Shown here: positions 22,313 to 53,769 of the stretch, piece by piece
Position numbering within the stretch: the first letter of the stretch is position 1
Layout: each line of letters begins with the position of its first letter
DNA from: a virus
DNA: 53,769 nt
Strand: one strand, 5' to 3'
Virus record (IMG/VR): IMGVR_UViG_3300021197_002023
Location: 1-53,769 of that record
Translations under genes and position numbers: made by a program
The notes under the pieces: model-generated
The model's database searches: none
Told to the model about the DNA's origin: nothing
Seen by the model: only the letters and a program-made list of their open reading frames with translations

Positions 22313-22319
22313 GAGAACT

Positions 22320-22765: not shown

Positions 22766-23064
22766 GTTTACTTATCTTTTCTTTAATAGCATCAGTATGT
22801 ATCAACCTGCTGTTGATCTGGTATATTAGAAAAATGTTACAAAAATTACTTTATGTCTCAGATAGTATAGGATCTTTGCTGGTTTCAGCCAAGGGCTTCT
22901 CTGACCACTTGGACGGACTACACGCTATGGAAATGTACTATGGAGATGAAACCCTTGGTGCTTTGATTAAACACGCGAAACAAGTCATAGAAGATATAAA
23001 AGATTTTGAGGATATCTACACTTTAACTAATGAAGGGTTAGAAGAAGATGAAGAGCAGGAATAA
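22762..23064 (+). CDS. Small membrane-anchored protein
   Basis: A 100-residue protein with one N-terminal membrane span (about 3-25) followed by a charged cytoplasmic-type helix and a very acidic C terminus (GLEEDEEQE). It starts with TTG overlapping the previous stop (TTGA), and its stop overlaps the next ATG. There is no lipobox. No family recognised. Confidence 0.65.
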   Translation: MSLLIFSLIASVCINLLLIWYIRKMLQKLLYVSDSIGSLLVSAKGFSDHLDGLHAMEMYYGDETLGALIKHAKQVIEDIKDFEDIYTLTNEGLEEDEEQE

Positions 23065-23747: not shown

Positions 23748-23765
23748 TACTTTTTTGCTCTTCAA

Positions 23766-23783
23766 CTATTTATTTGTGTTATG
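23766..23783 (+). promoter_or_regulatory. Conserved start-site element (copy 1)
   Basis: CTATTTATTTGTGTTATG ends on the start codon of the first virion gene. Sixteen of its 18 bases recur at 49598-49615, again ending on a start codon. It may be a promoter giving a leaderless message or a translation element. Confidence 0.4.
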
Positions 23784-24071
23784 AAAGACTTAGAAGCATA
23801 TATCGACGAAGCAATCAAAAACATAAGAAGTGATCGTGCCATCACGACAACCCTTCTGATGGAGCTAATGGAGTACATCAAGAAGGAAGACGGAAGGAAA
23901 GAAACTGTCGGCACAATTGCTGCTAAATATGTTGAAACACTCCAAAGATCAAATGAGCAATTAGTGAAGATTTCTACTCTTTTGCAAAAGAAAGCAGGGA
24001 CAGACCAAGGCTTAACTGACGAGGACAAAAGCGAACTGTTTGATCTTATAAAGGACTCAAGCAATGGTTAG
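23781..24071 (+). CDS. Small helical protein, first gene of the virion block
   Basis: A 96-residue, all-helical, charged protein with no recognised motif. It has no good Shine-Dalgarno; the element just upstream is repeated at another gene start. It overlaps the spike gene by eight bases. A chaperone or small baseplate/assembly protein is plausible from position only. Confidence 0.65.
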   Translation: MKDLEAYIDEAIKNIRSDRAITTTLLMELMEYIKKEDGRKETVGTIAAKYVETLQRSNEQLVKISTLLQKKAGTDQGLTDEDKSELFDLIKDSSNG

Positions 24072-25494: not shown

Positions 25495-25513
25495 TAAAGG
25501 AATTTTTTAAAAA

Positions 25514-26536: not shown

Positions 26537-29500
26537 ATGACAAAGATAGATCCAAATTTATTAGCGCCGAAAAAGGTTGAAATAAAAAAACCACTAGGAG
26601 GTGATGGAAAGTTGGCGGAAAACCTTATGGATGATCCTCCACTTGATACAACAGATTTACCTTTTTATTTCAAATTAAAGCCAGTCGACGCCCCAATTAA
26701 AGTAAAATCCTCAGTTGTTTTGCCATTGCCCATTTACAGTTCTGATGCTTTGCACAAAATAAAATTGTCCCCTGCTGGAGGATATTCTCAGCATGACGAC
26801 AAACCTCTATCATTCGAATACATATATAATAATTTTGACCCAGAAGATTTCGCACAACTTCTTGTTACCAGCGGAGTTTTAAGTAAAGCAATTAGATATG
26901 CTCTGCTGTATAATTATTTTGGGTACCCCATTGCAAATTACTCTGATGGAGAGGGAAATTATGAAATGGACAATACAGGCTTTGCTAAATACAATAATTT
27001 AGCAAAGCGTTGCCTCGGTACAGATCAGGCACTGCTAGCACAACTACACGCCCCCGAAGGCATCATATGGTCCCAAGAGAACTATGAGACATCTCTTACA
27101 CAATATTTAACTGATTACGTCCAAGGGTTTTATCAATTTGGAGAAATTGGATCATTACCCAGTTTTAATAGTAGCGCTTGGAATCAGGGCACTGATGAAA
27201 CCTCTAGCATAGAGTATTTCTCCCCAATAAAATTTTCAGAAGCTAAAGAAATTATAGGTGAATTTCCGGGATATTCCCTTGATTCAGAACTATCCTACGA
27301 ACAGCCCCCTTCTTTCTCGGGATTATACAATAGTCTTCATGGTATGGCATTCCCAAACGAGCCGTCATACGTTGAGCCAATTGGAATTGATGCACAATAT
27401 GCTGGAATTAGTGCTTATTTGGGCACAGCCCTAGGAGACCAGCCCGGAAATGATTATGTTGATTTACGCGGATCAGCGTTAAATTCATTAGCGTTCAATC
27501 CTTCGTGGGGAGCACATACAAATAACGTCCACAAGACTTACGCAAGAGCTTGGATGCCGTCAGATGTTCTAAGGGGTCTGGGATATTTTGCATCGACTTT
27601 AGATGCGTTTTCAAATCCAGACGTAGATGGCATTCCTGATCCCCACATAACCCTGTATGGCGCAGGAAATTCCGAATTGACTGTCGATAATAGTTTATGG
27701 GGTCAGCTAACTTATTCTAATTTTACAAAAAGTGGAGTTGGACCGTTTCCTTTTGAAAAAAAAGCAGAGCACTCTATAGAATTTAATTCTCTAGCTTACG
27801 TAACAGGTCACCCACAGTCTCTACCTTCCATGCCATTAACCGAAGGTCCGCAACTCGGCGGAACAATATACCACAGCTTTTGGAATATTCAGGCTGACCA
27901 ATTTAAAGGGTGGTACCATAATCTGGAAAGCTATATTAAAGAGCCTGAAGATGGATTTTCTCCTTTTTGGAAAAACAATTGGCAATCTTCTAACATTGTA
28001 TCAATGTATAAGTTAGTTCCAGCAGGGCTAAATACAAATGCTGAATTAAATAAATATAGAAACGATCCTGCAAAAACATTAAATGTTATATGGCCAAAGA
28101 TTTGGGATTACATTGAAAGAGTTGCGCCGAGAAAAATGTACCAATCTGAGCATATAACTTACGGAGAAAATATTCCCGGATCAGATCAGGGTTCAAAATT
28201 TAATAAATCTGATATTATCACAAGCCCATATGGATCAGGACCCAGTAGTGACTATGTTGCTTATGATTGGACACCAAAATTTAGAATTGGTCATCAAATG
28301 ACTCCCACGAAAGCCGGAGTAGGTCAGAGCCCCTTTGGGAACCCATCGGTTTATGATGGACCAGTGCCATCGTCGGAACAAGGTGGGGAGTTGGGATTTA
28401 CTCATGTCATAGGTGACTCTGGTGACCGTGGATATCACTTAATATATGCCCAAGATACCATTCAAGATGGTCTCTCGCAACAGTATAACCAAACAGGAAC
28501 TCAACAACGTTTCAGAAATAAGCTTAGTTTAAATTTTAAAACAGATTTTCACAGAGGATTCTTTTGGGATTCTAAATATGATAAATCCTTTGGATCAACA
28601 AAGGGCAAGTTTATAGATATTAGTTATGATCAACCAATCATTCAACAGGGCTTGTTCGCAGAGCCCCCGATTCCTGTTATTTCATATAAATTTTCAGTAG
28701 ACTATAGTCACGCCGCCGCCCTTGATGTGGGATTTACGCCGGACAACGGATCGGTATCAACCCCAAACCCTTGGGAGGATGAATTAGACTATTCATATTA
28801 TTTGTCGACAAAGATGTTGACATATTTGTATCTTAAAGCGCCCGCCGGATTTGATTCTGAGCTACCAAGCGTTGTTCCCGGAACAGGTTTTGGGAAATCG
28901 GCAGGGCATGCAACATCTATGTTGGAAAATGTTATTAAATCTTCTTACAAAGGAAGTGTTATGCTTCCAACATCCTATGGTGAAGAGCAATTTGGACAAT
29001 ACTTAGAATCTTCTGATTTTCAAGAATATTTGATTCCAAATTATATTTTTGAAACTTATAACGAAGATGATTTAGGAGATTTAAATGATTATGTCGATAG
29101 CTCGCATCCTGCCTTCACTGTTACCAATAAGTCCAATTTTGCATTACCAGTTTGGTATTATCAAGAAAACACATCATGGGACCCAAGAGACATAGAATGG
29201 TCAAAGATATCAGACTCTCAAAAGAAGATTGAACAATTAGAAGAGGCTGGAACTCTCGAAAAATACTCTGGTATTGAAAATTTAACAAATTACGGTTTGC
29301 CATCTTGGGTTAGATCTATAAGAATTTACCCATGCCCAGATAAACAAATTACGGCAACAAATCCTAATGCTTATGGTGTTTCTGGCATTGGGTGGGATGT
29401 GAATGTTGTCCCGCCTCAATTGCCAACAGACAAGGACTCCGAAGGTCAAACAGTAAGCGGTGATGGCTATGGATATTACCAATATAACGACATCAAAGAT

Positions 29501-32500
29501 GTTGCATCTGCTGCATTGAAAATTAATTTAGAGCCAATATCAAATAAGTGCTTGGATGATCAAGCCACAGAAATGAATCTCAATGCTTCTCTGGTGATGT
29601 ATAAACATGTAGATGTTAGATATGTTGTAGAATTAGATATCGACGAAAGGGAATTAATATTAACTATGGCAGGTCAGGGAGTATTTCAACTTGACGGGAC
29701 CATAGATCAGTACGAAGACATTGGCATATCTCTAAAAGACATCATAGACAAGACTTTTGGAAACGTTTCGTCGGAAGATATCAAGGAAGAATTGGATAGT
29801 GGAAATTATGACTTTGATTTATCAGGAAATGGGGAAATTGATTTTCAAAATCTCCCCGGTGCTGGAATATTCCCCCCATCCGAAGTAGACGAGATATGTG
29901 CATTGTTCGCAGAACCAGAATTATTGCAAAAAACTTTCGATATTATGGAGCAAAATCCAGCTAATATTGCGGATAATGATCCATGGAAATGCACAAGTTA
30001 TCTTTGTCTAAAAGAAATTGGTCAGCCAACTTATCGATTAAAGAAAGAGCCCGGAAAAGATGCTCAAAATATTGGATATCTAGATGACGGAACTATAGTG
30101 AAGGTTACAAAAGAGTGGGCGATTGGGAAGGGAGAATATCACAAGGTTTTAATTGTGGATAATAGCTCTCCATATTTTATGGAGGAAGGCTATATACCTC
30201 CCGAGTTGCTTAAGCCGCTGTTCCCAAATACACAACAAAACTCAAAAATCTTCTTCAATCAGATATTTGATAATTTAAGTTTGGCAGAATCTCCAAAATT
30301 AGAAATGTCTGAAATGGCTAAAGCTCTTATTCCAAATTGGTGGAAAATGGAGGAGCCCTATTATCACAGAGAAGATATGGAGTATTGGGCAAATGTTGAA
30401 TTACCATATGACTGTGTTGTCGATGATCAAGATTTAGAAGCCAAGAAGCAAGAAGCAGTTATTTTAGGAATTGAGCAGTTGTTTAATTACTATAATGTTC
30501 TCTATACAGATGATGATATAAAAACCTTGGCTAATACTTATTTAGCAGCGAGGGCAGAGGAATGTTATATAGATTCTAGACCCGGTGCTCCAATTAAAGT
30601 TCTAGTGAAAGTGGGAGCAATTTATCTAAATGCTTTTCCAAATCAAGTGAAGAAGTTGCAAGATTTGAAATCTAGTTCTGCTAAAATCTTGTCACTGGAC
30701 TCAAGACATTATCAAACACATCTACAACACGCTATATTTTCTTTAAACAAAATATATTTAGACATTTTCTCTTCAAAATTCTCAGTCCCCGGATTAGATT
30801 TGGAAGCAGAGGCGCAAAGACTCTCTTATATCCCTGTTGGACTAAAAAAGATGCTCGCAGTTAATGGATATAACACAGGTGATGGTGATAGGCAAGACAT
30901 TATAAATTTAGGTTTTGATGAAAATTATGCTCTAACATTCGTTTCAATAATTGAGGACGCAGGACCATCCAGCAGTCCCGATTCTACAGAAGAAAAACTG
31001 GTCACGATTGGTTTTGATTTGTACAAAAATAGTGAGCCTTTCAATTTCCCAAATACAATGTCTCTGTTTTTTCATCATAGGGAATTGAAGAACCCTGTTT
31101 TAAAATGGCAAGATGTTGTGGAAAAGTGGATGATAAGCCCTACATATGAAATTGTTTCAAAAGATGAAGCAGGACCGCTGAATCTGCCATCCAACAGTTG
31201 TGGCTTAAAATACTTTGATTTACCACCTCTTACTGAGATAATGATGGGCATTGGTGAAAAAATAGATCTTGGATTAGACCTTCATCCAAGATATGATCTT
31301 GGTGCTTTTCAATTTAATTTGTTGCAATTTTTTCCACCTTGTCCAAAGCCTGCACCCGGAAAAGGGTCTCCATTTTATAAAATGCTTTCTGAGATTGATG
31401 GGCAGACCGTTGATTTTAGTCAAATGGACTTTATGGAAGCTTTGGAAGAAGAATCTTCAAGGGTACAGCAGTATGTAGGCGATTGGTTGGCATCGGGTGC
31501 TGCACTCAGAGATATAAGAGGTAAAATCTTTGATTTGGACGATTTGTATCTGTATGTTTTAAATTATATTACCCCAGAAGCTCTGTATAGTAAGATATGC
31601 AAATGCTTTATAGATCTAATGGGAATAGAGGGAATCCCAATCCCAAATCTTGAAATTAGCGCATCAGGCGGATCTGGAGGGTTGAATTTAGATCCGAATA
31701 CGCTAAAGAACAACCCAAAAAATATTTATAGTGGTGAGGGGGCAAAATTTAACACTAATTTTGTCGACAAAGATGGCAAGTTAAAAAACAAAGACTCTTT
31801 CATGGAAACATTAGCCGCAGAGGACTTGTTCTGCTCTTTTTGCTTTAACATACCATCGATTTTCTTTAGATTGCCGACAACTAATTTGTTAGATTTTTTA
31901 ATCTCTGCCCTGAAGGCGATTTTAGAATTCGCTTTAGCCCAAATTCTGCTCGAATTAATTATGGCATTGTTGGATGCATTGTTGACATGTCCAGAAATTA
32001 ATTGCCCCTCTAGTCAGGGAGGTATTAAAGACTATGGCGCACAAAGCCTTGCAGAATTAGCGCCCAATGGAGTGGAAACCTATAGAGAGTGTGGCATACC
32101 AATTGACGGAGTTAATGTCACAAATGAGTCGGTATCATCGATGCTAGAAGAATGTTCTAATTCTTTAACAACATCGGAGGTGCTTGGCTTACTTGATGGA
32201 AGCGCAACAAAAGAAACTTTAAAAGTCATAGAGAGAGTCATTACAAAATATCCGAATATATCAAGCCAGATCAATACTACCGCACAGCTAACAACAATTT
32301 TTTCTTGTGTTGGAAATAAAGTTGGACCTGATACACTGGGCGATTTAGGGTTTGAAGTAACTACTTTAGTAAATGACAAAAATTTGTGCCAAGAGTTGAT
32401 ACAAACTAACGAGCAAGCGATTTTGGATAAGTGTGGTAATATACCAGATGCGCTGTCTATGGCTTCCAAAGTTTTAAATCCGGATTTTAGTAAGTACGCA

Positions 32501-35437
32501 GACATAGCAAGAATTATTAGAGAAAATGACGATCTATCGACACAGATTCCGCCTTTGTTTTCTGATGGAAAAGGAATGCAGGCGCTACTATCGGGCTTGA
32601 AGTCTGATACTGCTGACTTCGCACTGCAAGAGGCGCTTGAGACACAGGCAGTAACAGCCGAATCTTCCCTCATGCAAGAAGTGAAACAACTTTTCAAGGC
32701 TCCAACTTTGATGGAACAAGTTGCAGGAGTGGGTAATGTATACGTAAAGGCAAATGAAAAATTTGCATATTATAAATTTAATGGAGCTTTCAATACGTGG
32801 ATGACGGCAGTATTTGATGAAGGCGGATCTCATGAAAATCAGTTGCCTAAATTAAATGTTCTTGATGGGGACCCAATACCCATGTCACATATTATAAGGA
32901 ATATATCAAACTCAATAAAGGCACCAATTAATCCGTTTGTTGCTGAGTTAAAAGCTGAATTGACGGAAGATGATTATGTTCATTTGACTTTTGGTCAACC
33001 ATACGATAGCGACGGTGATGGGTCTTTGGACTATAACGATTCATATTCGTTTGTTTTAAACAGCCAAAATGGAATCAATTTATCAATCTCTGGAAACCCA
33101 TCATTATTACCGCCGGATATGCTTGAGTATTTAAATAAAAACGATTTAGAGTCTAGTGGAAATTGTGAACAATCTCAGTTTTTGTCATACTTGATCCTAT
33201 CCAATCTTAATATGGATAATATAGATCAACCACTGGGATCCTCTGCTGACAAGCTAAAAGAGATGTTGGAGAGTCAAGTGTATGTAAGCGCCCTATCCTC
33301 TGGTCTCACTAATATGGGGAATATTGTTTCCAAGTCAAAGTTGTTAGAATCATATGACATCGAATTTTGGAACGCGGTTAGTGCAACATTGGCGGGACCG
33401 GCTTCTCTTGCAACTCTTACTTTTCTCCCGCCAATCGCTGCTGTTCTGGCAGCCCCCGGCGTTGCTTACAGCGCATATGAGGTATTGCAACTTCTCCTAC
33501 CAGAGTTAAAAAGGCAGCAACTAGAAAAAGTTAATTTAATATCATCTAATGCTCCTGACAGCAGTGGAAACATAAGAAGGACATTTATTGATTTTGATTT
33601 TGGAATAGAATTGGCAAAAGTTGAATATGATTTTTCTAAATACTATGACCCAAATTCTCCATTCATTGGAATGCCTCATTACGCAATGCTTGAAAGCGTT
33701 GTATCCAATATGATGCAATTATTTGTTGGCGAGGCTCTTGTGCGAGGAGTTTTCATATTGCCGTTTTTCCCGAAAGAGGTGTTTTTAAATGACGATATTG
33801 CAAACTTTGTTTTAGCGATATTTGACTCTTATCTGAACACAAAAGCTGGAGGTGCGGGTCCTAAAATCAGAACAACACTGATGAGAATGGTTTATGAAAA
33901 AACAGAATTTACACCCAATGAAAATTCATCTAAACCTTTAATGCCCGGAGAAACACAAGATATTGATGCGCTTGTTGCTGGCACCTTACAGCCTTTTGGT
34001 GGTAAAATATATGACGCTAGTTACGGAAGAGAATATGAAATCAATAGTTGGAAAGACTGTGCCCTGTACTTTATTAGGAAGAATATGGAGCGCCCCCTAT
34101 CCTATATAAAAGATAAGTTAACCAACACGACTCTTGGAGGGGAAAACCAGATGGATCAAGAAGTTAATCCATTCTTCCTGATGGTACAGAAAGGCATGAA
34201 AGAGGTGCATTCGTATTACGATATGACTTGGATGAACACGAAGCCGAACAATATTTCCAGTACCCTAGTCCAAAATGATATGATAGGTGTTACAAAGAAT
34301 GGAGCATTTGTCGTTCAATATTATTTCAGAATTGAAGATTTGTCACTCGGAGATGATCTTTATTACGAATACCTAGTTCAAAGAAAAAAAGTTATGATAT
34401 CTAATGTTGCCACTGGTTTAATCGATGGAGATGATTGGAGCCCACCCGGAAGCGAAGAGTATCTTGAAGACATATTCGATGATTTCAGTCCCGTCAGCGA
34501 AGGTGAAGACGGTGAGAATAATTTTGAGCCTTATCCATGGCCCGGTCAAAAACCAAATGATTTTGTCGGTGACCCCGGAGCCGAAGAGTTTTTGCTGATT
34601 TCAAACCCAGACCTTTCTCTAAAGAGTATATTAAATAGAGATTCCTTATATAGGCTTTGGCAGGCAATGAGTGTTTTAGATAACAATACTGCAAAGGGAA
34701 ACTATGCCATATCAAAAGATGACCAAGCAAAGACCTTTGCATCATTTTTTAAATCTATTAAGCTGGGGGTTAGACTTTGTTATGTAGTGGGCGACTCAAC
34801 TGAGGTTAATGTAGAGACTGGCGTACCAATAATAGATGAGGGGGATGTTGTCAAAAGGCAAGACGTAAAAGATTTTACACAAAATATAATTGATTTATTA
34901 CAGGAAGACAAACAAGGAAGCGGAAACCTTAGTACATATCAGCAATATGAAAAAATGTTGCTAATTGAGGAAAAACATATCGCTGGAACCGACACTAGCG
35001 TTATCCTTCCCTTAATTGAAAAAGAAGTTGACATAACTAATCATGATATTTTTCAAAATCCTGTTAGTAGTTTTAGTCCCGGAGAAACAGGCGATGAGCT
35101 TAGTGCGGTCATCACAGATCCAGAAATTGCTAGTAAGCTTAATAGTCTTGTGGTAGATATGTTTTCTGGAATAGAGGGTAGAACTCTTTTTAAATATTGT
35201 CTCCCTATCCCAAAGTTGGCTACAATGTTGTTTATGTATAATGCTATTGGATTATCAACTGACGACAATATCAATAATGCATTCGATAGCACTAAAGAAA
35301 TTATAAAACAAAACTTCGAATCTATTTATGATATTAAGGGACCAGAAGCATATAAGTACCAGCCTCAATACATCAAAGACCGGGGCGGTCCTCGCGGAAT
35401 CGCTGCATCTGCCTCAGAACAAACAGATGAAGAATAA
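26537..35437 (+). CDS. Giant virion/baseplate protein, 2966 residues
   Basis: An uninterrupted frame between the spike genes and gp25, so almost certainly a baseplate or tail component; I recognise no whole-length family. Visible pieces: an SH3-like segment at about 1164-1226 (YRLKKEPGKDAQNIGYLDDG); two EF-hand-like loops, D1094-N1105 (DLSGNGEIDFQN) and D2157-D2168 (DSDGDGSLDYND), the latter with all canonical calcium positions; and two long hydrophobic helices at 1784-1817 and 2283-2318, rich in Leu and Ala, that could be membrane-active or buried. The first 1000 residues are rich in Tyr, Ser, Pro and Gly, like beta-structured fibre proteins. Its size is far beyond the hub proteins of T4. 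A role as hub scaffold or tape-like element is inference. Confidence 0.8.
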   Translation: MTKIDPNLLAPKKVEIKKPLGGDGKLAENLMDDPPLDTTDLPFYFKLKPVDAPIKVKSSVVLPLPIYSSDALHKIKLSPAGGYSQHDDKPLSFEYIYNNFDPEDFAQLLVTSGVLSKAIRYALLYNYFGYPIANYSDGEGNYEMDNTGFAKYNNLAKRCLGTDQALLAQLHAPEGIIWSQENYETSLTQYLTDYVQGFYQFGEIGSLPSFNSSAWNQGTDETSSIEYFSPIKFSEAKEIIGEFPGYSLDSELSYEQPPSFSGLYNSLHGMAFPNEPSYVEPIGIDAQYAGISAYLGTALGDQPGNDYVDLRGSALNSLAFNPSWGAHTNNVHKTYARAWMPSDVLRGLGYFASTLDAFSNPDVDGIPDPHITLYGAGNSELTVDNSLWGQLTYSNFTKSGVGPFPFEKKAEHSIEFNSLAYVTGHPQSLPSMPLTEGPQLGGTIYHSFWNIQADQFKGWYHNLESYIKEPEDGFSPFWKNNWQSSNIVSMYKLVPAGLNTNAELNKYRNDPAKTLNVIWPKIWDYIERVAPRKMYQSEHITYGENIPGSDQGSKFNKSDIITSPYGSGPSSDYVAYDWTPKFRIGHQMTPTKAGVGQSPFGNPSVYDGPVPSSEQGGELGFTHVIGDSGDRGYHLIYAQDTIQDGLSQQYNQTGTQQRFRNKLSLNFKTDFHRGFFWDSKYDKSFGSTKGKFIDISYDQPIIQQGLFAEPPIPVISYKFSVDYSHAAALDVGFTPDNGSVSTPNPWEDELDYSYYLSTKMLTYLYLKAPAGFDSELPSVVPGTGFGKSAGHATSMLENVIKSSYKGSVMLPTSYGEEQFGQYLESSDFQEYLIPNYIFETYNEDDLGDLNDYVDSSHPAFTVTNKSNFALPVWYYQENTSWDPRDIEWSKISDSQKKIEQLEEAGTLEKYSGIENLTNYGLPSWVRSIRIYPCPDKQITATNPNAYGVSGIGWDVNVVPPQLPTDKDSEGQTVSGDGYGYYQYNDIKDVASAALKINLEPISNKCLDDQATEMNLNASLVMYKHVDVRYVVELDIDERELILTMAGQGVFQLDGTIDQYEDIGISLKDIIDKTFGNVSSEDIKEELDSGNYDFDLSGNGEIDFQNLPGAGIFPPSEVDEICALFAEPELLQKTFDIMEQNPANIADNDPWKCTSYLCLKEIGQPTYRLKKEPGKDAQNIGYLDDGTIVKVTKEWAIGKGEYHKVLIVDNSSPYFMEEGYIPPELLKPLFPNTQQNSKIFFNQIFDNLSLAESPKLEMSEMAKALIPNWWKMEEPYYHREDMEYWANVELPYDCVVDDQDLEAKKQEAVILGIEQLFNYYNVLYTDDDIKTLANTYLAARAEECYIDSRPGAPIKVLVKVGAIYLNAFPNQVKKLQDLKSSSAKILSLDSRHYQTHLQHAIFSLNKIYLDIFSSKFSVPGLDLEAEAQRLSYIPVGLKKMLAVNGYNTGDGDRQDIINLGFDENYALTFVSIIEDAGPSSSPDSTEEKLVTIGFDLYKNSEPFNFPNTMSLFFHHRELKNPVLKWQDVVEKWMISPTYEIVSKDEAGPLNLPSNSCGLKYFDLPPLTEIMMGIGEKIDLGLDLHPRYDLGAFQFNLLQFFPPCPKPAPGKGSPFYKMLSEIDGQTVDFSQMDFMEALEEESSRVQQYVGDWLASGAALRDIRGKIFDLDDLYLYVLNYITPEALYSKICKCFIDLMGIEGIPIPNLEISASGGSGGLNLDPNTLKNNPKNIYSGEGAKFNTNFVDKDGKLKNKDSFMETLAAEDLFCSFCFNIPSIFFRLPTTNLLDFLISALKAILEFALAQILLELIMALLDALLTCPEINCPSSQGGIKDYGAQSLAELAPNGVETYRECGIPIDGVNVTNESVSSMLEECSNSLTTSEVLGLLDGSATKETLKVIERVITKYPNISSQINTTAQLTTIFSCVGNKVGPDTLGDLGFEVTTLVNDKNLCQELIQTNEQAILDKCGNIPDALSMASKVLNPDFSKYADIARIIRENDDLSTQIPPLFSDGKGMQALLSGLKSDTADFALQEALETQAVTAESSLMQEVKQLFKAPTLMEQVAGVGNVYVKANEKFAYYKFNGAFNTWMTAVFDEGGSHENQLPKLNVLDGDPIPMSHIIRNISNSIKAPINPFVAELKAELTEDDYVHLTFGQPYDSDGDGSLDYNDSYSFVLNSQNGINLSISGNPSLLPPDMLEYLNKNDLESSGNCEQSQFLSYLILSNLNMDNIDQPLGSSADKLKEMLESQVYVSALSSGLTNMGNIVSKSKLLESYDIEFWNAVSATLAGPASLATLTFLPPIAAVLAAPGVAYSAYEVLQLLLPELKRQQLEKVNLISSNAPDSSGNIRRTFIDFDFGIELAKVEYDFSKYYDPNSPFIGMPHYAMLESVVSNMMQLFVGEALVRGVFILPFFPKEVFLNDDIANFVLAIFDSYLNTKAGGAGPKIRTTLMRMVYEKTEFTPNENSSKPLMPGETQDIDALVAGTLQPFGGKIYDASYGREYEINSWKDCALYFIRKNMERPLSYIKDKLTNTTLGGENQMDQEVNPFFLMVQKGMKEVHSYYDMTWMNTKPNNISSTLVQNDMIGVTKNGAFVVQYYFRIEDLSLGDDLYYEYLVQRKKVMISNVATGLIDGDDWSPPGSEEYLEDIFDDFSPVSEGEDGENNFEPYPWPGQKPNDFVGDPGAEEFLLISNPDLSLKSILNRDSLYRLWQAMSVLDNNTAKGNYAISKDDQAKTFASFFKSIKLGVRLCYVVGDSTEVNVETGVPIIDEGDVVKRQDVKDFTQNIIDLLQEDKQGSGNLSTYQQYEKMLLIEEKHIAGTDTSVILPLIEKEVDITNHDIFQNPVSSFSPGETGDELSAVITDPEIASKLNSLVVDMFSGIEGRTLFKYCLPIPKLATMLFMYNAIGLSTDDNINNAFDSTKEIIKQNFESIYDIKGPEAYKYQPQYIKDRGGPRGIAASASEQTDEE

Positions 35438-35440
35438 ATA
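35433..35440 (+). promoter_or_regulatory. Late-promoter-like octamer before gp25
   Basis: AATAAATA, one base from the T4 late consensus, overlaps the stop codon of the giant gene and ends 18 bases before the gp25 ATG. Same spacing as the octamer at 26512. Confidence 0.3.
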
Positions 35441-35458
35441 TAAAAGGGCGAATTTAAG

Positions 35459-35854
35459 ATGACAAAGTATTCTCCAAAATTACCATTAGCTCCAGCAGAA
35501 GATGACACGCATCTAATGCTAAAAACAATCAAAGAAGTTGTAAAACAAAATATGAAAATGGTCATCCTGACTAATCCCGGTGAAAGAATTATGATGCCAA
35601 ATTTTGGTGTGGGAATACAGCAATATCTTTTTGAGAATGTAAACCCGGTTATGTTAGAATCAGCAAAGCAACGCATTGAAGCGCAGGTGGAAAGATTTCT
35701 ACCATATGTTATTTTGCAGAGTGTTGTATTGAACACTAATAATGACAACCCACAACTTTCAAGCAACACTGTTTATGTGAGCATTACATACTCCATACCT
35801 TCATTAAATACGTCGGACATACTAGTTTTGAATTTAGATCAGTCAGAATTTTAG
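35459..35854 (+). CDS. gp25: gp25-like baseplate wedge protein
   Basis: A 131-residue protein of the T4 gp25/GPW family, the conserved baseplate protein that nucleates sheath assembly. The core NPGERIMMPNFGVGIQQYLFE (written here in two parts: NPGERIMMPNFG and VGIQQYLFE) is the family hallmark, followed by a helix and strands ending in a beta hairpin. Length is standard. It precedes gp6, as in many contractile-tail systems. A 61-base gap separates it from gp6. Confidence 0.92.
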   Translation: MTKYSPKLPLAPAEDDTHLMLKTIKEVVKQNMKMVILTNPGERIMMPNFGVGIQQYLFENVNPVMLESAKQRIEAQVERFLPYVILQSVVLNTNNDNPQLSSNTVYVSITYSIPSLNTSDILVLNLDQSEF

Positions 35855-35915
35855 CATTTTGCAAAAGATAATACTGACTTAAAACTATTTAATAAAAACA
35901 GGGGAGATTTAAGCT

Positions 35916-39673: not shown

Positions 39674-39680
39674 TGCCAGT

Positions 39681-45600: not shown

Positions 45601-48600
45601 AGTACATTTTTGGTCGCCCCGCCGCCTCCGCAGGGGCACTTTTCTTGCCACAAGATTTTATAGGTTTAAACAATTTTACATATCTAAGCGCCAACGAGAT
45701 GGACAACAATACACTGTCGTTTAATTTAAATACTGATTTTGTTGGGGCAACCATTGTTGGCGGTGCTTTGGGCAGCGCTGCACCCGTAGAGGGACTAAAC
45801 ATAAATCTTTTAAAAGGCAATGGTCCATACGGCTACCCTTCTTGGAAGCAGATACAAAATTCATATAATCCAATTGTAAGATACATGAAGCGTATTAATA
45901 GGTTTTCTATTTTAACAGAGAACATAACGATTTCTCCCGGCGATCTTAAGCAGCAGTATTTAAAAACTCAGACCTTGCAGAACTTTACTGAGCCGATGGT
46001 TTCTTTCAAATATAAGCCAATTGAACATGATTTGATTGCGATTACAGAGAAAGATGAGCAAACTAAAATAGAAATAGATAGTTCTTATTCAAATTGCCTA
46101 TCTGGTTTTGCTAATAATAAAATAGATCTGCTTTTGAATTACAAAAAGAATATAAATGATATAAAATTGGTATATAACTCTCTAAAAAATATGTACTTGG
46201 GAAACAACATTCCAAGTGGATCTAACCCAGTTAAGGGCTTGGAAAAGCTCTCCTACAGAGAGGTGGTTTATCCACGCGAAAGAAACACAGGTTTAGCAAA
46301 AACAAGGAGCAGGGAAAACTATACGGTTTCAAGTGGATCTTCTGATTTTAATCTTCGCTTGGGTGATTCTTTGGCTTTTTGGAAAGACAATATCAATGAT
46401 AGATTAAGAAGTGATGCAGAAGCGAGAAATGCACAGGGGTTGATTATCGCCAGTGGCTCGTCCTACTTTGGATTAACTGACATGAGTATTTGGCCACTAG
46501 ACGCCGAGGAGCCATTTTTAGATTTATATCAAATATCTTCTTCTGCTGGACAAGACGGAAAGCACGATCCATATTATTGGGCACCCTTATCCCCTTCATC
46601 AGCCGCCGGAACACCTCTTGGGGGATTAAATCCAGCTAGAACTTCAAGAATCGGGAACTTAAATAAAAATGGAGAATTATCATACGCTGGTTACATCTAT
46701 GGCTTATTTGGAATTAACATTCAGGGCAAGGTGCGCCAAGAGGGAGCACTAACTGGCTCAGGGCCCCTTCCAAACTTTTTGGGCAATGGCACTTCAGATG
46801 ATGGCTTGAACTACAGCCCTTCGGCGTCGTTTCAATATGAATACCCAAGCATGATGATGTCTGGTGCTATTGCAGGCTCGCGTTTCAACTCTCCCTCCGC
46901 CTCTTTACACCTCATGGCTCCATATCGAGCCGATATTTTGAGCGGGAAAACCCCATGGTTCAATTCTTATGAAGATTACGCAGAGGATATTAGAAGAATA
47001 GCAAAAGATTACACAGTAATTCCTGAGTTTAGAATCTCAGATCACATAGATTATTATTTAAAAGAGGGATTCTTTGCTGATAATAACAAATTTTTGGACA
47101 TAATAGGGGCTTCGCTGGCTAACACGTCTAGTGCCACAGCAGAAACTGGCTCTTTTCAGCCAGACTTCTTTAAAGTGTATTCTCATAGTGATTTTATGAA
47201 ACATTTTTCCATCATTCAGGAAGATCACAAGAAAAACAGCACTGCTTTTGCATCTACATTGAGATTAGAGGCTAGCGCCATAAAAAAATTGTTACCATAT
47301 CAAGGATTTTATCCTGTTTTGAGGTCTATGCAATTAGGACAACTATTTTCTTCTTCTTATGCGCCTTTTATAACTGGCTCCAATGCGCGTGACGGAGCAC
47401 AAGAGCGACTCGCTGCACTTTACCAGCCATTTTTTGCTCCGGGTATTTTCTTTAATACAATTAAGTCAGGCATTGCCGTTTCATACCCAGTACATACAGC
47501 ATCTGCTCCGATTTTAGATAAAGCTAATGGTCTAACTGTTTCTGTCCCGACTTCGGCATCTTTATTCGTGTCAAATGTGTATACGACAACTCCGAATTAC
47601 AACTTCCCATTCGAAGCTATTCTAGACCCAGATCAGTATTTGCCATTGTCTTCGTCTCTAACCAGTTCGACAATAAACACTTTATCTTCGAGCGTGTACT
47701 TTGTATATCCAAACTTTACGGGATCTGTTGCTGGCAATGCTTTTTTTGATAGTTATTATACTGCACAGACAGTCGACAACCCGTATACTCCGTATGGTGG
47801 GGTGGTGAGAGATCAGCCTCAATTCTTTTTCGAGTGGCAGGGACAAAGTGACCCCAAGTATTCTATTGCTGCGAGTAATTTCTTTGCAGAGACAGTTGAT
47901 TTTTTCTTAGATCGAGGCACTTTAACTAGTTTTATTTCGAAACCCGAGAAAGATTTTAAGTCTATGGTGTCTGGATCAACGTACTACATGGACGTATTAC
48001 TGTATAAAACAGATGACTATGTGTCCTACGAAGGACCACCATCAGGGACGTTCAATTATGATGGAGGGGCAAAATATGCTGATGGTGGTTTCTTATCAGA
48101 CGCTCTAAAGAATGCAAACGGAGATGGATTCTTAAATAAAGGAATTTCAGCTAGAGGAATGCATTATGGTCCGTCCTACAAATCTAGTGGTATTGCGTGG
48201 GGGTCCACCGGTACCGGAAGCGTACCATATGCTGCATTTAGGGCGCAGGACCCAACTTACGCTCCACATACACCCCCATATTTCTATGGAACCTCTAGAG
48301 CGAGAATTGGCTTTAAGCCTGACAAAGTAAGAGACATGACATCTGGTGAATCATCCAAATTTACTTTAGAGGAAGTTTTATCAAATGCAAAAGTAGAAAC
48401 AATCTACCAGAATGAAAACGAAAGAGCCAAAACCTTGCAAGAGGACAGCTATAGAAATAATTTTGCTGCTGGCATCTCCCAGATGCAGTTGAGTTCTTCT
48501 GTTAATCTTTTTGGACAGATCACCCTTAAAGAAATCCAGTATGGCACAGAAAGAAACCGCGATGGAACCTTTAAGGCAAGAAGCGCAACAACTCCAGTTG

Positions 48601-49580
48601 TTCAAGGTACTAACGACGCTTGGATTATCGAAACAAAATTTGAGTGCCCCTCTGTCAATATGGCGCACATGGACACTGCCTCCCTCGGTGCGGGAATAGG
48701 GGATGGAAAAGAAAAATATCACACAAGAGGCATTTGGAAGGGGTATGGAGTAGTACCATCTGGATCAGAGGGTCTTTTCTTGCAATTGAAAGAAAGCTAT
48801 CCACAAGTAACAAATGATATTGGTGGAACTGTGTCTGGTGAGCTAACTGGCTCTCTTATTGATGTATGTGGGTTTAAAGCATCCAAAGAAAGAATCGGAG
48901 AGATGAGAAGTAAAAAAACAATTTCAGAGGCTATTGTTGCAGTTCCAATTGATGAAAAAGGAAATTTCTACACCATAGATCCTGCTATGTTTGAAAAACA
49001 AAGATTGAATTATGAGACAAGCAATAAAGCTCTAATGGCAGGCGACTTTGGCATCGAAAACGATATTGGAGAAACTTCAATTACACAGATGATTGAAAAA
49101 ATGAAAAAGTTCTCCCTTCCCCCTCAAATGGATTTTCTAAACAACCCCAATGTTGATCCTTTTGTTATGTATATATTTGACTTTACTCACACCCTTGATA
49201 AGCAGGATTTGGCAGATATTTGGCAGAACTTAATGCCGAAAATCTCCACGACAGCGGAGAGGGGCACCTCTGCCATTGAGCACGAGATAGGGGTTAATTA
49301 TGAGTTCTTTGGTCGGTATAAAAAAGGGCAATTGCCTGATAATATTAGGTGGATGGTTTTTAAGGTAAAGCAGAAGGCAAGAAATAATTACTTCAATGTC
49401 ACACAACAGTCTGAGGTTGCAAAAGGATTCACCTTTACTGCCCTCAAGGAACTGCAAGGCATCGGATCAAATCCAGAAGCGGAATTAACATACAGTTACA
49501 ACTGGCCGTATGATTTCTTTTCTCTTGTTGAGTTGGCGCAAATTGAATCAGAGGTTGTTTTTGAGCCTCCAAAAGAATAG
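39681..49580 (+). CDS. Giant modular baseplate protein, 3299 residues, with gpI/gp7-like core
   Basis: One uninterrupted frame after gp6 and the 640-residue protein. Regions in order: residues 205-410 a LamG/ConA-like lectin domain (NTVEFWLKLPL, WNHWAFTVENA, FDEFRFWTIHRD); 525-670 resembling P2 gpI and T4 gp7 (MLPSWIIEEDEFKGKN, INKSKGTIKSITNMM, CFGVDDDLYS); 740-970 a second lectin-like sandwich (DRWNFSVRAYP, KRIYVGAHRTNF); 1718-1874 a beta module shared with the previous gene; then long Ser/Gly/Tyr-rich stretches to a C terminus ending in a compact domain. T4 gp7, the wedge periphery protein after gp6, has 1032 residues; this may be its enlarged counterpart with receptor-binding additions. 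Function is inferred from order and motifs. Confidence 0.82.
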   Translation: MNIYDLYGGTFSGGPGKIEVIAKNPGASIVKPGSMKEYRVGTSIDQISRKIESPDYISEFSFDRSRYIPQIDFSDPSKFAYFGSAQQYYIKAIENIYRFYPYDGSLKEKLEWHNESSYFDNYVFEKEYPRTNGYVEIGETWGSAATSTLTVAPDQYKLSNAPQYISVKGGPHAASVPTYTSGTYSKNLSFKEAEQKANIYDAESRQMQNFTIDGTKGNTVEFWLKLPLEPSKSQTSPSHAYFDLWNGETIGQNPYGRFLVETRYNNSTGPAGDYVGDSFFHITYMSGTAGVLRAKVGAKELTGALGINLADWNHWAFTVENATTDDLEIKLYANGELIETTLTGSAIQPVRTGSFNALIGAYKHAPDSDAASAGFLGEGNGTLSGSYFDEFRFWTIHRDSDDIKFNWFKQVAGGTNTDYGTARSKFYRDTNPVNLGVYFKFNEGITTSAEHDRVTLDYSGRVSNGYISNYTSAMRSTGSAIVEKKAATREFKDPIIYKFHPDVVAYEHSSSIKGREYDGRNSMFLQNMLPSWIIEEDEFKGKNQALYLNQILASYLDNLYLQIEKMPSLKNIDYVSGSSSGSINKPIPFADRLLANAGLVVPEIFSNANVFESLADRDDEREFERKLNDIKNQIYSNIYNNLIYINKSKGTIKSITNMMRCFGVDDDLYSINFYANNAQLDLKGNFVPKTIRKSYADFSTADKFGASVFQMTQSSNTNSVSFITGSYKGATEASPSADGWDTENSFTLETEVLFPNYPNPIQPGGRERDFNNVSASLFGIHSAVVEAASDPGDTTWAGRDYANFQVYAVREKANNAENESRNVRFILTSSNPLSTDNGLISEMTSQTFKQVYDGDRWNFSVRAYPSKYPNVGYVSGSEDTEYTVQFTGFNMVGDVVKDSFDLTSSISRTNGILFNNSNKRIYVGAHRTNFTGDLLCPTNVKVSSCRYWAIKLEDHELYSHALDPKNYGVYNPMQTSHLLQDRGGQYPVDIPKIKSLWMNWDFDTLTGSDTGEYNGEFSVADFSSGSGENIYKSYISAGAEKQHTGRGVYFPAGNNQTGSISREYVYAYRQQVPENLNNLNAIKVLNRDDEFFTKRTRPVSFSMSVEKSMYQNISEEMINFIAASQEASAMEDLIGRPVNKYRDRYKDLEKVRNIFFTRIGNVPDVDKYIEYFKWLDTSISQMIQQIVPVSSNFSSVRNMIESHIFERSGKYKHKFPTIERVYPKDKSVDEYLNQIQYNSIQTSEGGYNAIATSRLSPETLSIRGSNVSVPSHMARQLTSWSNNHASIENAGDTPDQAESLWWWRNRVEFSADTSKNSGNTALNTSATKTFEAATSRTQQAGYNIILSSEETPISSPNPDSILSFAVDSGGDAISFNDQNRSRPKKDRNFRDVVFREAPAGSGTRLSFNTSTFARQPNTNTLDKIDPNRKFKPEFNVELPSVSTETGVDGRKYAPISFQSSSTSNPFVTGSTPWHIGYELSTQHLQDYYLDNKDIPIQGPFTQQNVGGYAYRHAGLNLGVASTTRQEAWYAYRTITANPNGVRFDFYNIYDLPGGVNAPRATMLREEVAKRPLNIKNIKSTTSSANTQNPYLPPVNELGSTKVYNGNYEKDYQIIQIADRDTNNRYFVDNGGISTASAASTGTPSVSGSYDWTVPDRGKNEHIFVSRFSAPGGPEVNGQAFLNYESEVYSPYNAMTYRNLSVRQPLQTLLTRHTAFGGLENDPGDAASLTKAIKITGVANNDRFTVIVPSAISGSNTTITIRVLSTALGTPPSNEAQVREGSSAEATRNRMVGLINGNNGVATTVYKYGAGSGDYTSGIAGITATAVDDGGQFFITITANKDGAAGNGTIFTDVAGTMIAGGGAGSSPARLFGGRGVSFRASFHKTQRNAIRRIKYTDIFGTAATSSIYDNYYVQHQIPQSDRQYAWISASAVTTPLGFSQKDYANRSFASTDIAFVTASDFGAFINTSLLGNGKYIFGRPAASAGALFLPQDFIGLNNFTYLSANEMDNNTLSFNLNTDFVGATIVGGALGSAAPVEGLNINLLKGNGPYGYPSWKQIQNSYNPIVRYMKRINRFSILTENITISPGDLKQQYLKTQTLQNFTEPMVSFKYKPIEHDLIAITEKDEQTKIEIDSSYSNCLSGFANNKIDLLLNYKKNINDIKLVYNSLKNMYLGNNIPSGSNPVKGLEKLSYREVVYPRERNTGLAKTRSRENYTVSSGSSDFNLRLGDSLAFWKDNINDRLRSDAEARNAQGLIIASGSSYFGLTDMSIWPLDAEEPFLDLYQISSSAGQDGKHDPYYWAPLSPSSAAGTPLGGLNPARTSRIGNLNKNGELSYAGYIYGLFGINIQGKVRQEGALTGSGPLPNFLGNGTSDDGLNYSPSASFQYEYPSMMMSGAIAGSRFNSPSASLHLMAPYRADILSGKTPWFNSYEDYAEDIRRIAKDYTVIPEFRISDHIDYYLKEGFFADNNKFLDIIGASLANTSSATAETGSFQPDFFKVYSHSDFMKHFSIIQEDHKKNSTAFASTLRLEASAIKKLLPYQGFYPVLRSMQLGQLFSSSYAPFITGSNARDGAQERLAALYQPFFAPGIFFNTIKSGIAVSYPVHTASAPILDKANGLTVSVPTSASLFVSNVYTTTPNYNFPFEAILDPDQYLPLSSSLTSSTINTLSSSVYFVYPNFTGSVAGNAFFDSYYTAQTVDNPYTPYGGVVRDQPQFFFEWQGQSDPKYSIAASNFFAETVDFFLDRGTLTSFISKPEKDFKSMVSGSTYYMDVLLYKTDDYVSYEGPPSGTFNYDGGAKYADGGFLSDALKNANGDGFLNKGISARGMHYGPSYKSSGIAWGSTGTGSVPYAAFRAQDPTYAPHTPPYFYGTSRARIGFKPDKVRDMTSGESSKFTLEEVLSNAKVETIYQNENERAKTLQEDSYRNNFAAGISQMQLSSSVNLFGQITLKEIQYGTERNRDGTFKARSATTPVVQGTNDAWIIETKFECPSVNMAHMDTASLGAGIGDGKEKYHTRGIWKGYGVVPSGSEGLFLQLKESYPQVTNDIGGTVSGELTGSLIDVCGFKASKERIGEMRSKKTISEAIVAVPIDEKGNFYTIDPAMFEKQRLNYETSNKALMAGDFGIENDIGETSITQMIEKMKKFSLPPQMDFLNNPNVDPFVMYIFDFTHTLDKQDLADIWQNLMPKISTTAERGTSAIEHEIGVNYEFFGRYKKGQLPDNIRWMVFKVKQKARNNYFNVTQQSEVAKGFTFTALKELQGIGSNPEAELTYSYNWPYDFFSLVELAQIESEVVFEPPKE
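44832..45302 (+). repeat. Inserted beta module, copy B
   Basis: Codes for residues 1718-1874 of the 3299-residue protein: KITGVANNDRFTVIVPS, TTITIRVLSTALG, EATRNRMVGLIN, ITATAVDDGGQFFITITANK and DGAAGNGTIF, closing at LFGGR. Same order of strands and helix as copy A, though diverged in sequence. Confidence 0.5.
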
Positions 49581-49597
49581 AAATTTAACAATTAAGG

Positions 49598-49615
49598 CTA
49601 TTTATAGGTGTTATG
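49598..49615 (+). promoter_or_regulatory. Conserved start-site element (copy 2)
   Basis: CTATTTATAGGTGTTATG ends on the start codon of the 367-residue protein. It differs from the copy at 23766 at two adjacent bases, which here create GGTG, a possible ribosome site. Confidence 0.4.
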
Positions 49616-50716
49616 GAATTTTTTGATAGAAAAGAAGAAGTATTAGATGTACAATTAACTCAGTATGGCAAGTATCTTTTGTCAATTGGAAAATTGAATC
49701 CATCCTATTATGCTTTTTTTGATAGCGATATAGATTATGACAGCCAATATCGGGGAGATCCACCCGCTCCGGGGAATACTCCCGGTCCATCAGAAAACCA
49801 AAAAGATACAGAAGATAGACTAAAGGAAACGCCAAGAATAAAAGCTATCCATAGTCTTGATACGGTAGATAAAAGCTCAATCCAAATGGAAGTCCCTGTG
49901 CAAATAGAGATAAACATACCCAACTCTATATTGGATCAAGAGGCTGGAGCCCCCCCAATAAAGGAAACTATTGTTGAGACTGTCTTTGAAACACAAGATG
50001 TTAATGTCAACTTATTAACACCGGAGTCTTCCAACGAGTTTTTGAGTCAAACTTATGGAGATATACCATACAAATATGTGCCCCCTGAAAAACAAAATGT
50101 ATTGGGGCTAGAATTGCCATTGGGAACTTCGGATTATAATTCACAATATTATCCTGCTTTTGAATTAGTTTTTGGAAAGAGCAAAATTAAAGATTCTATA
50201 TATTACGATGATCATAAATTTGGAGTATTTAGAATTCCCCAAATAGAAGTAGAGGTAACATTCGAGACTACAGTTGGGACGGCAACTGACAAGGCAGATT
50301 TTAGTATTAAAGAGGTTGTTTCCATCAAGGATTCTAATGAACCGGCAAATTATAATTATACAAAAGTATCAGAAGACGGAACTTACATAAAGGTAGAAGA
50401 AGACTACATCTATATAAATTTAAAAGAATTAAATTCTTTAGAAGACAAGGAAAATTTTGTAATAGAGGTATACGAGGTAGAAAACCCAGACACATCAGAC
50501 GAGGTATTGCATCCACTAAGATTCTCTGGAGAATATATGAACGATCTTTATTCAGATTATCTATACGACAAAACAAACAACTCTTTAGAGGCAGGAAACA
50601 AGTTTGTTGAGTATTTCTTTAAATTAACAGTTGATGACGAGATAAAGTCTGCACCAGAAGCAGGTAAAATTTCCGTTCCGTTGCCAACTAATGATTTTGA
50701 TGTTTGCGAGGATTAA
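49613..50716 (+). CDS. Virion structural protein, 367 residues
   Basis: The N terminus (MEFFDRKEEVLDVQLTQY, then GKYLLSIGKLNPSYYAFFD) resembles a conserved beginning I associate with structural proteins of marine phages. A Pro/Gly linker follows at about 50-60, then an acidic, beta-rich body. No enzyme motif. It lies 32 bases after the 3299-residue gene and six before the next, both structural, and is preceded by the start-site element. Probably a tail or baseplate attachment protein. Confidence 0.65.
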   Translation: MEFFDRKEEVLDVQLTQYGKYLLSIGKLNPSYYAFFDSDIDYDSQYRGDPPAPGNTPGPSENQKDTEDRLKETPRIKAIHSLDTVDKSSIQMEVPVQIEINIPNSILDQEAGAPPIKETIVETVFETQDVNVNLLTPESSNEFLSQTYGDIPYKYVPPEKQNVLGLELPLGTSDYNSQYYPAFELVFGKSKIKDSIYYDDHKFGVFRIPQIEVEVTFETTVGTATDKADFSIKEVVSIKDSNEPANYNYTKVSEDGTYIKVEEDYIYINLKELNSLEDKENFVIEVYEVENPDTSDEVLHPLRFSGEYMNDLYSDYLYDKTNNSLEAGNKFVEYFFKLTVDDEIKSAPEAGKISVPLPTNDFDVCED

Positions 50717-50722
50717 TAAGGT

Positions 50723-53700: not shown

Positions 53701-53769
53701 TAATTACAAAAATTTAAGAAGAATAGAGGTATTCAAGGGATATGGAATGACAAAAGGCAAGCTTGATAT
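50723..53769 (+). CDS. Very large virion protein, 3' end outside the window
   Basis: The frame starts at ATG 50723 (AATAAGGT just before it, six bases after the previous stop) and is open for 1015 codons to the last base, so this is a third oversized gene. The N-terminal 80 residues are Ser/Asn/Gly-rich (MAYNVSERDLSGGVLPNIYI), then a mix of charged and beta-type segments (VKSGSLKVNLSMHF). About 580-650 is a helix-rich stretch. No family recognised. Position makes a baseplate or tail component likely. Confidence 0.75.
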   Translation, partial: MAYNVSERDLSGGVLPNIYITNIDLSAGAMSSRSKNENPHTSAGSNSTRGSASPTNQSASGKPVKSGSLKVNLSMHFKAKGLNAALNTGLTKHLKVLLIQCTSETLHDRLTSDISNFMSSYIDTGSMRDVEGKHFSYRIISASNIKSNLSKKSTTSGKSGSSLSNISLDQSFTLNTHQDTPDVTFLSYFAIPFLDRNEMQYDYDGSSEFGRNDRRILSMSSFGNVSSEIVLKGGRTNKKSFAFKSTSMNEFWIGPKHQMDDGSYMKYSSHGGNPKNNLLMIEVDNIKVKDHRVYDKICGLDINLFDEESSIIEDEKIISEARKDRSLSMINKKNHDFISEFMITRDTFNNARFMFSIDVEGMIRSATDFPMFLSNVKSSDHNLYNTLIKNTKIRNLKISRRTIKTNQDTSLLFKKAPFVEGEESIVILETADSNKSSGYLKPIIYTTNTIQDQSGELLGVQPRPLGSLEELSIVVTSGNAPVRHFSGSDFDVSKKKSGTYEYVLELEFEDPVLPMMKTMLNKLKQLIYGTSPYGTSGLEQYHRDSISQPDAYDSITNQFNMSFINFYNKKYGGTDQNINENFIFYAVNTFINMLYSLSGTAGFGQQYMSQEDALMYLTNMSSPNSGSPEGISKFLQLAYIFQEKIEGVILKNSRYKKYRGGGFEEVLANNKGIQSSNERKNQKISHTFKETYNSNTNSQIGYEYLFSSSSDKENNLNGLTLFSDSIIKERFKLETQKYFKALNADVSIVDKDNNEYNPGENIENTKYSFLSTSNIYLLESDKNIIFSNVNKRIKTPEFKKMNEVLSRVLTYNYAKDTLINMSARQDVDNSGYKLIQTLNQASVGNSRDLRRGKDRANSHSVFKEGAKKELIDDGELLFVEREGDSVISSNMVDDYKRVLMLSNFISNSDFLNENNSSKYYFLNDENGANKIKDRANYNPTGLIGAPNQIKSLFLSFLGSDKVYNNSAFEGMGNLYDISSDVFRNPEYAGFIFFNYKNLRRIEVFKGYGMTKGKLD

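What the first reader, a model, noticed from the sequence alone, without database searches (positions are those of the whole stretch)
26537..53769. Three giant genes in one baseplate block
Genes of 2966, 3299 and at least 1015 codons (truncated) alternate with normal-sized gp25, gp6 and small proteins. In T4-like phages the largest wedge and fibre proteins of this area are about 1000-1300 residues. The frames are intact over about 9-10 kb each. This suggests a baseplate with an extra outer structure, built by enlarging single chains rather than adding genes.
Basis: partly seen in the sequence, partly recalled or inferred. Interest (0 to 1): 0.75.

Follow-up and report, generated by a model that had tools for sequence, protein, structure and literature searches.

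The report
Giant modular baseplate-wedge genes in marine phages
A widespread group of uncultured marine T4-like phages carries two real giant tail-base genes; the larger looks like an ordinary baseplate wedge protein with a sugar-binding domain that became about three times longer by carrying extra modules, which some relatives still encode as separate genes.

Summary
The long frames are real. G1 (2966 aa) and G2 (3299 aa) are intact, under purifying selection along their length, and kept in the same gene order in dozens of marine viral contigs. The third gene (at least 1015 aa) is not a giant: complete relatives are 926-1243 aa.

G2's first ~1220 residues are the conserved core. They carry a laminin-G/concanavalin-A-like lectin domain and, at residues ~495-680, a weak but reproducible match to P2 gpI (Tail_P2_I), the wedge protein that corresponds to T4 gp7. 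Phages Mel-JY01, immuto and LR756508 have essentially only this core (1265-1400 aa). The remaining ~2000 residues form further modules. In ten distinct relatives the G2 homologue is two genes, cut at one of three recurrent borders, so giant and split forms interchange.

G1 has a core with a bacterial SH3-like domain plus a ~1110-residue N-terminal extension confined to the window's subclade. It is not the tape measure protein.

The block also gained separate genes (orf367, G3 and the next gene), so "enlarging chains rather than adding genes" is only half right. Most likely this is an enlarged, glycan-contacting outer baseplate on a standard gp25-gp6-gp7-type wedge. Virion location and function are inferred. 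I found no published description.

The parts
24064..25494 (+). M74-type murein endopeptidase domain protein (476 aa), probable tail lysin/hub-associated
   Evidence: Pfam PF03411 8.9e-10; same place in relatives G001 and G010
25514..26509 (+). orf331, conserved protein of unknown role; spike/hub component guessed from position
   Evidence: homologues upstream of G1 in ten loci; no PHROG hit
26537..29866 (+). G1 N-terminal extension (residues 1-1110), specific to the window's subclade
   Evidence: absent from distant G1s, which begin near window residue 1150; found in G001 and weakly in G012-G015
29867..35437 (+). G1 core (residues ~1111-2966), shared across the clade
29984..30226 (+). bacterial SH3-like domain at the start of the G1 core (approximate limits)
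   Evidence: Pfam SH3_3 in 5 of 24 members, best 1e-5; AF2 model and Foldseek consistent but no hit at E<=0.001
35459..35854 (+). gp25-type baseplate wedge protein
   Evidence: PF04965 3e-15; phrog_261 4.6e-22
35916..37751 (+). gp6-type baseplate wedge protein
   Evidence: phrog_219 1.4e-27; tblastn to Mel-JY01 and immuto over 98-99% of length
37751..39673 (+). orf640; carbohydrate-binding-like (CBM96-type) protein between gp6 and G2
   Evidence: CBM96 best 5.5e-5 in 2 of 15 members; counterparts of 369-420 aa in Mel-JY01, immuto and LR756508
38333..38725 (+). inserted segment of orf640 (residues ~195-325), in the window's subclade
39681..43340 (+). G2 module A (residues 1-1220), conserved core
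   Evidence: AF2 pLDDT 78.4
40299..40913 (+). laminin-G/concanavalin-A-like lectin domain of G2 (residues 207-411)
   Evidence: PF13385 in 10 of 12 members, best 4.9e-25; Foldseek pentraxin/alginate lyase
41163..41720 (+). gpI/gp7-like segment of G2 (residues ~495-680) with invariant KGT at 649-651
43998..45485 (+). G2 module B (residues ~1440-1935)
   Evidence: borders from split relatives
44898..45350 (+). inserted segment in G2 (residues ~1740-1890), rare in relatives
45528..46430 (+). G2 module C (residues ~1950-2250)
   Evidence: borders from split relatives
46923..49580 (+). G2 module D (residues ~2415-3299)
   Evidence: borders from split relatives; conserved C-terminus, pN/pS down to 0.07
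49613..50716 (+). orf367, added tail gene
   Evidence: conserved after G2; no convincing counterpart in Mel-JY01/immuto/LR756508
50723..53769 (+). G3, added tail gene, cut by the contig end; expected full size ~1000-1250 aa
   Evidence: complete homologues 926-1243 aa

Best explanation
This is the baseplate operon of a far-T4-like marine contractile phage. G2 is the gpI/gp7-type wedge protein (partner of gp6) carrying a lectin-like domain, joined in one chain to ~2000 further residues that probably belong to the outer baseplate. G1 is a second enlarged tail protein with an SH3-like domain and a subclade-specific ~1.1-kaa N-terminal extension. Proposed working: the gpI-like part docks on gp6 in each of six wedges; the lectin-like domain and the joined modules form a peripheral skirt that contacts glycans on the host surface and relays contact to wedge rearrangement and sheath contraction. 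A single chain would fix a 1:1 ratio of outer modules to wedges. Shown: reality and conservation of the frames, homology of the core, lectin domain, modularity, gene splitting/joining, extra genes. Inferred: gp7-type role, six copies, peripheral location, glycan contact, triggering.
For: gp25 and gp6 next to G2. G2 core homologous to the 1265-1400 aa protein in the same slot of Mel-JY01, immuto and LR756508. Lectin domain by profile and by fold. gpI-like segment: PF09684 is the family hit by most members (5 of 46), the only matching place in three of ten genome scans, and gpI profile scores above all column-shuffled decoys: 22.8 against 18.5, and 26.5 against 18.2. KGT motif also in the three outgroup phages. 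G2 split at three recurrent borders in relatives, at least 8-9 state changes on a gp6 tree. G1 extension in one subclade only. Tape measure lies elsewhere. CBM96-like domain in orf640.
Against: PF09684 never reaches its cut-off; hhalign probabilities are low in absolute terms. hhalign to T4 gp7 is negative, and no gp7/TssG structure is among the top 50 Foldseek hits. orf640 lies between gp6 and G2, whereas gpI/gp7 follows directly in P2/T4. Modules B-D have no assigned function apart from extra lectin copies in 4 of 17 relatives. No proteomic or structural data on virions.
Confidence: 0.55

Rival explanations
1. G2 is a fibre or receptor-binding adhesin that happens to follow gp6, not the wedge partner of gp6; the gpI-like motif is chance or a docking remnant, and orf640 or an unseen gene plays the gp7/gpI part.
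For: Lectin and CBM96-like domains, large length variation (2783-4986 aa), sub-threshold PF09684 scores, orf640 directly after gp6.
Against: The N-terminal core with the motif is the best conserved part, unlike receptor-binding tips; the motif is invariant in 76 sequences and present in distant phages; scores exceed all decoys.
Confidence: 0.25
2. The giant chains are made as polyproteins and cut by a protease after synthesis, so the virion holds normal-sized parts.
For: Recurrent gene splits at three borders show that the parts can exist separately.
Against: No protease gene or cleavage motif was sought or seen in the block; the borders are not a single conserved sequence. Not tested further.
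Confidence: 0.12
3. G1 is the tape measure protein, its length setting an extremely long tail.
For: Very long, strongly length-variable, upstream of gp25.
Against: In G006 a 912-aa coiled-coil-like ORF with seven hydrophobic segments lies beside the sheath, in the slot of immuto's annotated tape measure; G1 has few helix formers and is rich in aromatics.
Confidence: 0.03
4. The long frames are assembly artefacts or non-coding open frames.
For: The window is a single metagenomic contig.
Against: Codon-position constraint in all tiles; unsplit frames in dozens of contigs from many metagenomes.
Confidence: 0.01

Closest known systems
G2-slot proteins of Microcystis phage Mel-JY01 (1336 aa), Flavobacterium phage immuto (1265 aa) and metagenomic phage LR756508 (1400 aa)
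   Same: Same gene slot after gp25-gp6-orf640 counterpart; G2-core profile hits at E 1e-14 to 1e-16; shared KGT motif
   Different: About the size of G2 module A only; modules B-D, orf367 and G3 have no clear counterpart
gpI of phage P2 / gp7 of T4 / TssG of T6SS (wedge partner of gp6/J/TssF)
   Same: Motif and profile similarity at G2 residues ~495-680 to gpI relatives; position downstream of gp25 and gp6. The correspondence gpI = gp7 = TssG is from PMC6300606
   Different: gpI is 176 aa and T4 gp7 is 119 kDa in six copies (PMC3004832) against ~363 kDa for G2; no direct match to T4 gp7; orf640 intervenes
Unnamed proteins of uncultured marine viruses in UniProt/BFVD (A0A516MAV8, A0A1B1IUQ9, A0A0F7L9Z0)
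   Same: Near full-length fold match to G2 residues 1-1200, 33-37% identity, TM up to 0.84
   Different: No function assigned; they are listed as pieces, and their full lengths were not checked
Anabaena myophage A-1(L) baseplate
   Same: A wedge protein (gp31, two copies with one gp32) carries an insertion domain that holds the long tail fibre, a precedent for enlarging a wedge chain (PMC10966104)
   Different: The insert there is ~100 residues, not ~2000; no homology tested

Membership tests
gpI/gp7 wedge protein (Tail_P2_I, PF09684) | Score above the Pfam gathering cut-off | tested here: not met
   best 0.012 in 5 of 46 members; 0 of 10 genome records over the cut-off
gpI/gp7 wedge protein (Tail_P2_I, PF09684) | Profile similarity to gpI relatives above matched decoys | tested here: met
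   22.8 against 60 decoys (max 18.5) and 26.5 against 100 decoys (max 18.2)
gpI/gp7 wedge protein (Tail_P2_I, PF09684) | Gene directly after gp6/J | tested here: inconclusive
   second gene after gp6; orf640 lies between
gpI/gp7 wedge protein (Tail_P2_I, PF09684) | Fold match to a solved gp7/TssG | tested here: inconclusive
   not among the 50 listed Foldseek hits of the whole 1200-residue model, which are dominated by lectin folds; the segment was not searched alone
gpI/gp7 wedge protein (Tail_P2_I, PF09684) | (gp6)2-(gp7)1 heterotrimer | not testable with these tools
   needs complex prediction or biochemistry
Laminin_G_3 / concanavalin-A-like lectin domain (part of G2) | Pfam profile match and jellyroll fold | tested here: met
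   10 of 12 members, best 4.9e-25; the window copy itself is just below cut-off, 26.7 against 27.6 bits; pentraxin/alginate-lyase fold matches
Laminin_G_3 / concanavalin-A-like lectin domain (part of G2) | Carbohydrate binding | not testable with these tools
   needs a binding assay
Tape measure protein (considered for G1) | Helical, hydrophobic-segment-rich, encoded beside sheath and tube | tested here: not met
   the candidate in that slot is a different 912-aa ORF
Far-T4-like phages | T4-type virion genes most related to distant Flavobacterium/Microcystis T4-like phages | tested here: met
   gp25 and gp6, gp55-like, relative G006: TerL 46% to immuto, MCP 50% over its C-terminal part
Far-T4-like phages | Placement in a gp23 tree with published Far-T4 sequences | not tested
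   the window lacks gp23; no such tree was built

The most novel reading that the evidence does not exclude
A clade of abundant marine phages has rebuilt the outer baseplate as a few covalent 300-550 kDa chains: a gp7-type wedge protein joined to its peripheral partners and lectins, plus a giant SH3-bearing partner, with the same parts repeatedly split and joined during evolution. That would be a natural experiment on whether outer baseplate parts need a covalent link to the wedge.
Probability: 0.4. Interest if true: 0.75.

Novelty: new variant of a known kind. Interest (0 to 1): 0.55.

Why it matters
If G2 is the gp7-type wedge protein, it is about three times the mass of T4 gp7 (up to about 4.6 times in one relative), and natural split/joined pairs show which parts can be separate. 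The lectin-like and CBM96-like domains make the baseplate itself a candidate reader of host glycans.

Tried and rejected
Single-sequence Pfam/PHROGs on G1/G2/G3: nothing significant. tblastn of the giants in phage records: none. Profile searches of PDB sequences for the G2 core, G1, orf640, orf331, the gpI-like segment and G2 modules B-D: no credible hit. G1 as tape measure: rejected. hhalign of G2 to T4 gp7: negative. A 75-row fast MAFFT alignment of G1 was too poor to use. Pattern scan of IMG/VR with G1 residues 1-1150 confirmed no relative, although direct searches of five related contigs found them. Tandem repeats: none. Scan of bacterial genome contigs: one short MAG contig binned as Maricaulis, not a host assignment. 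L056/L075 are identical over 15,234 bp and count once. L113's apparent three-way split has overlapping and gapped frames and may be a sequencing error. Paper searches for giant phage baseplate genes or lectin-bearing wedge proteins found nothing that describes this; only open-licence papers could be searched.

Full report
Observation. The three frames exist exactly as described: G1 26537-35437 (2966 aa), G2 39681-49580 (3299 aa), G3 50723 to the contig end (1015 aa, open). Between them lie gp25 (PF04965 3e-15), gp6 (phrog_219 1.4e-27), a 640-aa ORF and a 367-aa ORF. The window is an IMG/VR virus record of 53,769 bases. Random frames of these lengths have log10 probabilities near -95 and -106. 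Against the closest contig G001 (aligned residues 71% identical in G2 and 43% in G1), changes are concentrated at third codon positions in every 400-codon tile of both genes.

Relatives. G1, G2 (first 3000 residues) and G3 have no tblastn match in 50,697 phage records. gp6 does, best in Microcystis phage Mel-JY01, Flavobacterium phage immuto and metagenomic phage LR756508. The order orf331 - G1 - gp25 - gp6 - orf640 - G2 - orf367 - G3 recurs, with gp55 upstream where the contig reaches it. gp6 (595-614 aa) and gp25 (120-153 aa) keep their size. Unsplit complete G2 runs from 2783 to 4325 aa in the survey and is 4986 aa in G003. Complete G1 is mostly about 1500-2824 aa, with open frames of up to 3310 aa in close relatives. 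Some loci are near-duplicates, so these are counts of contigs, not of species. TerL of the relative G006 is closest to immuto, 46%. Published work describes Far-T4 phages as common in aquatic habitats and predicts marine Bacteroidetes as hosts (PMC7198788; PMC4360716). The word 'baseplate' occurs in neither paper's main text.

G3 is not a giant. Complete homologues are 926-1243 aa, and the 1243-aa copy of G001 aligns to window residues 3-1010. One relative (G009) appears to split it into 299 and 700 aa.

G2 core. In the 11-sequence alignment residues 50-1220 are the conserved core (about 25-57% mean identity to the more distant members per 50-residue block) and the rest is patchier. A family profile hits the 1336, 1265 and 1400 aa proteins in the same slot of Mel-JY01, immuto and LR756508 at E 1e-14 to 1e-16, with core columns. 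The core contains a Laminin_G_3 domain (10 of 12 members, best 4.9e-25). The AlphaFold2 model (pLDDT 78.4) has pentraxin and alginate-lyase jellyrolls as best solved matches. A few relatives have additional lectin copies further on, which explains only part of the length variation.

gpI-like segment. Residues ~495-680 carry an invariant KGT motif resembling P2 gpI. PF09684 is the family hit by most members of this segment, but below its cut-off (5 of 46, best 0.012). A genome scan with PF09684 matched 3 of 10 records, each at one place only, in the G2 gene. Profile-profile comparison with nine gpI relatives gave 22.8 against a maximum of 18.5 in 60 column-shuffled decoys, and 26.5 against 18.2 in 100 decoys for a set that includes Mel-JY01, immuto and LR756508. 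Other alignments of the same operon scored 14-17. The motif is present in all three outgroup phages. Comparison with T4 gp7 itself was negative, and no gp7/TssG structure is among the listed Foldseek hits. I therefore hold that G2 probably works like, and is probably related to, a gpI/gp7-type wedge protein, but I do not file it as a PF09684 member. The gpI/gp7/TssG correspondence comes from PMC6300606, T4 gp7 mass and copy number from PMC3004832, and the P2 order V-W-J-I from the P2 record.

Splitting and joining. Thirteen loci, ten of them distinct and reliable, encode the G2 homologue as two genes, cut at one of three borders of window G2: ~1220|1441, ~1702-1935|1903-1998 and ~2073-2246|2355-2424. 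Several downstream genes have a clear Shine-Dalgarno-like sequence, strongest in L019, L099/L100 and L108; others do not, and isolated sequencing errors cannot be excluded for each single case. L099 and L100 are 98% identical and share the split; L056 and L075 are the same sequence. On a gp6 tree the whole/split state needs at least 8-9 changes. The tree does not say which state is ancestral.

G1. Distant G1s align from about window residue 1146-1168 onward, and their own start codons lie a few tens of residues before that. Residues 1-1110 are shared only with G001 and, weakly, with G012-G015. The core begins with a bacterial SH3-like domain (SH3_3 in 5 of 24 members, best 1e-5; the model and Foldseek agree, but without a hit at E<=0.001). 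Most of the rest was not modelled with confidence (mean pLDDT 58). G1 is not the tape measure: G006 has a coiled-coil-like 912-aa ORF with seven hydrophobic segments beside the sheath, where immuto's annotated tape measure lies, whereas G1 has few helix formers. Its place between orf331 and gp25 suggests a protein between hub and wedge; a gp53/LysM-like role would be a guess.

Added genes. From gp25 to the next shared tail gene the block spans 8.7-8.9 kb in immuto and Mel-JY01 and 21.7-25.5 kb in six contigs of this clade. Besides the extra modules of G2 this comes from orf367, G3 and a following 639-1356 aa gene, which have no clear counterpart in the outgroup phages. So both routes were taken: longer chains and more genes.

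Mechanism (inferred). orf640 and G2 carry carbohydrate-binding-like domains. Together with a gpI-like docking segment, the simplest reading is six copies of G2 around the baseplate, its extra modules forming a peripheral skirt that contacts host glycans. Nothing here shows virion location, copy number or sugar binding.

Noticed in passing
window 3640-22312: About 20 genes upstream of the baseplate block look like a surface-glycan pathway: a family-2 glycosyltransferase (7681-9306) and two nucleotide-sugar epimerases (20389-22312) are supported by Pfam, and many neighbours have homologues in the same place in G001, G006 and G011.
   Followed up: partly
window 38333-38725 (orf640 residues ~195-325) and 44898-45350 (G2 residues ~1740-1890): Two inserted segments limited to few relatives; by eye they look alike, but a phmmer search with each did not find the other.
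   Followed up: partly
window 49613-49750; G006 contig position 100315 (335-aa ORF): orf367 and a downstream tail gene start with similar motifs (FxDRKEEVLDVQLTQYGKYLLSxGKL... and FLDNSGDIILDAVLTDAGRARLAxGDG...), suggesting paralogues (weak profile hit to Mel-JY01).
   Followed up: no
window 941-1027 and 3309-3385: tRNA-Leu(taa) and tRNA-Met(cat) genes at the left end of the window.
   Followed up: no
L003 (immuto) 16021-17136; L002 (Mel-JY01) 22274-26284: Public annotation of this region is unreliable: a gene in the immuto baseplate block is called 'DNA repair ATPase RecN', and the Mel-JY01 G2 counterpart is a 'hypothetical protein'.
   Followed up: no
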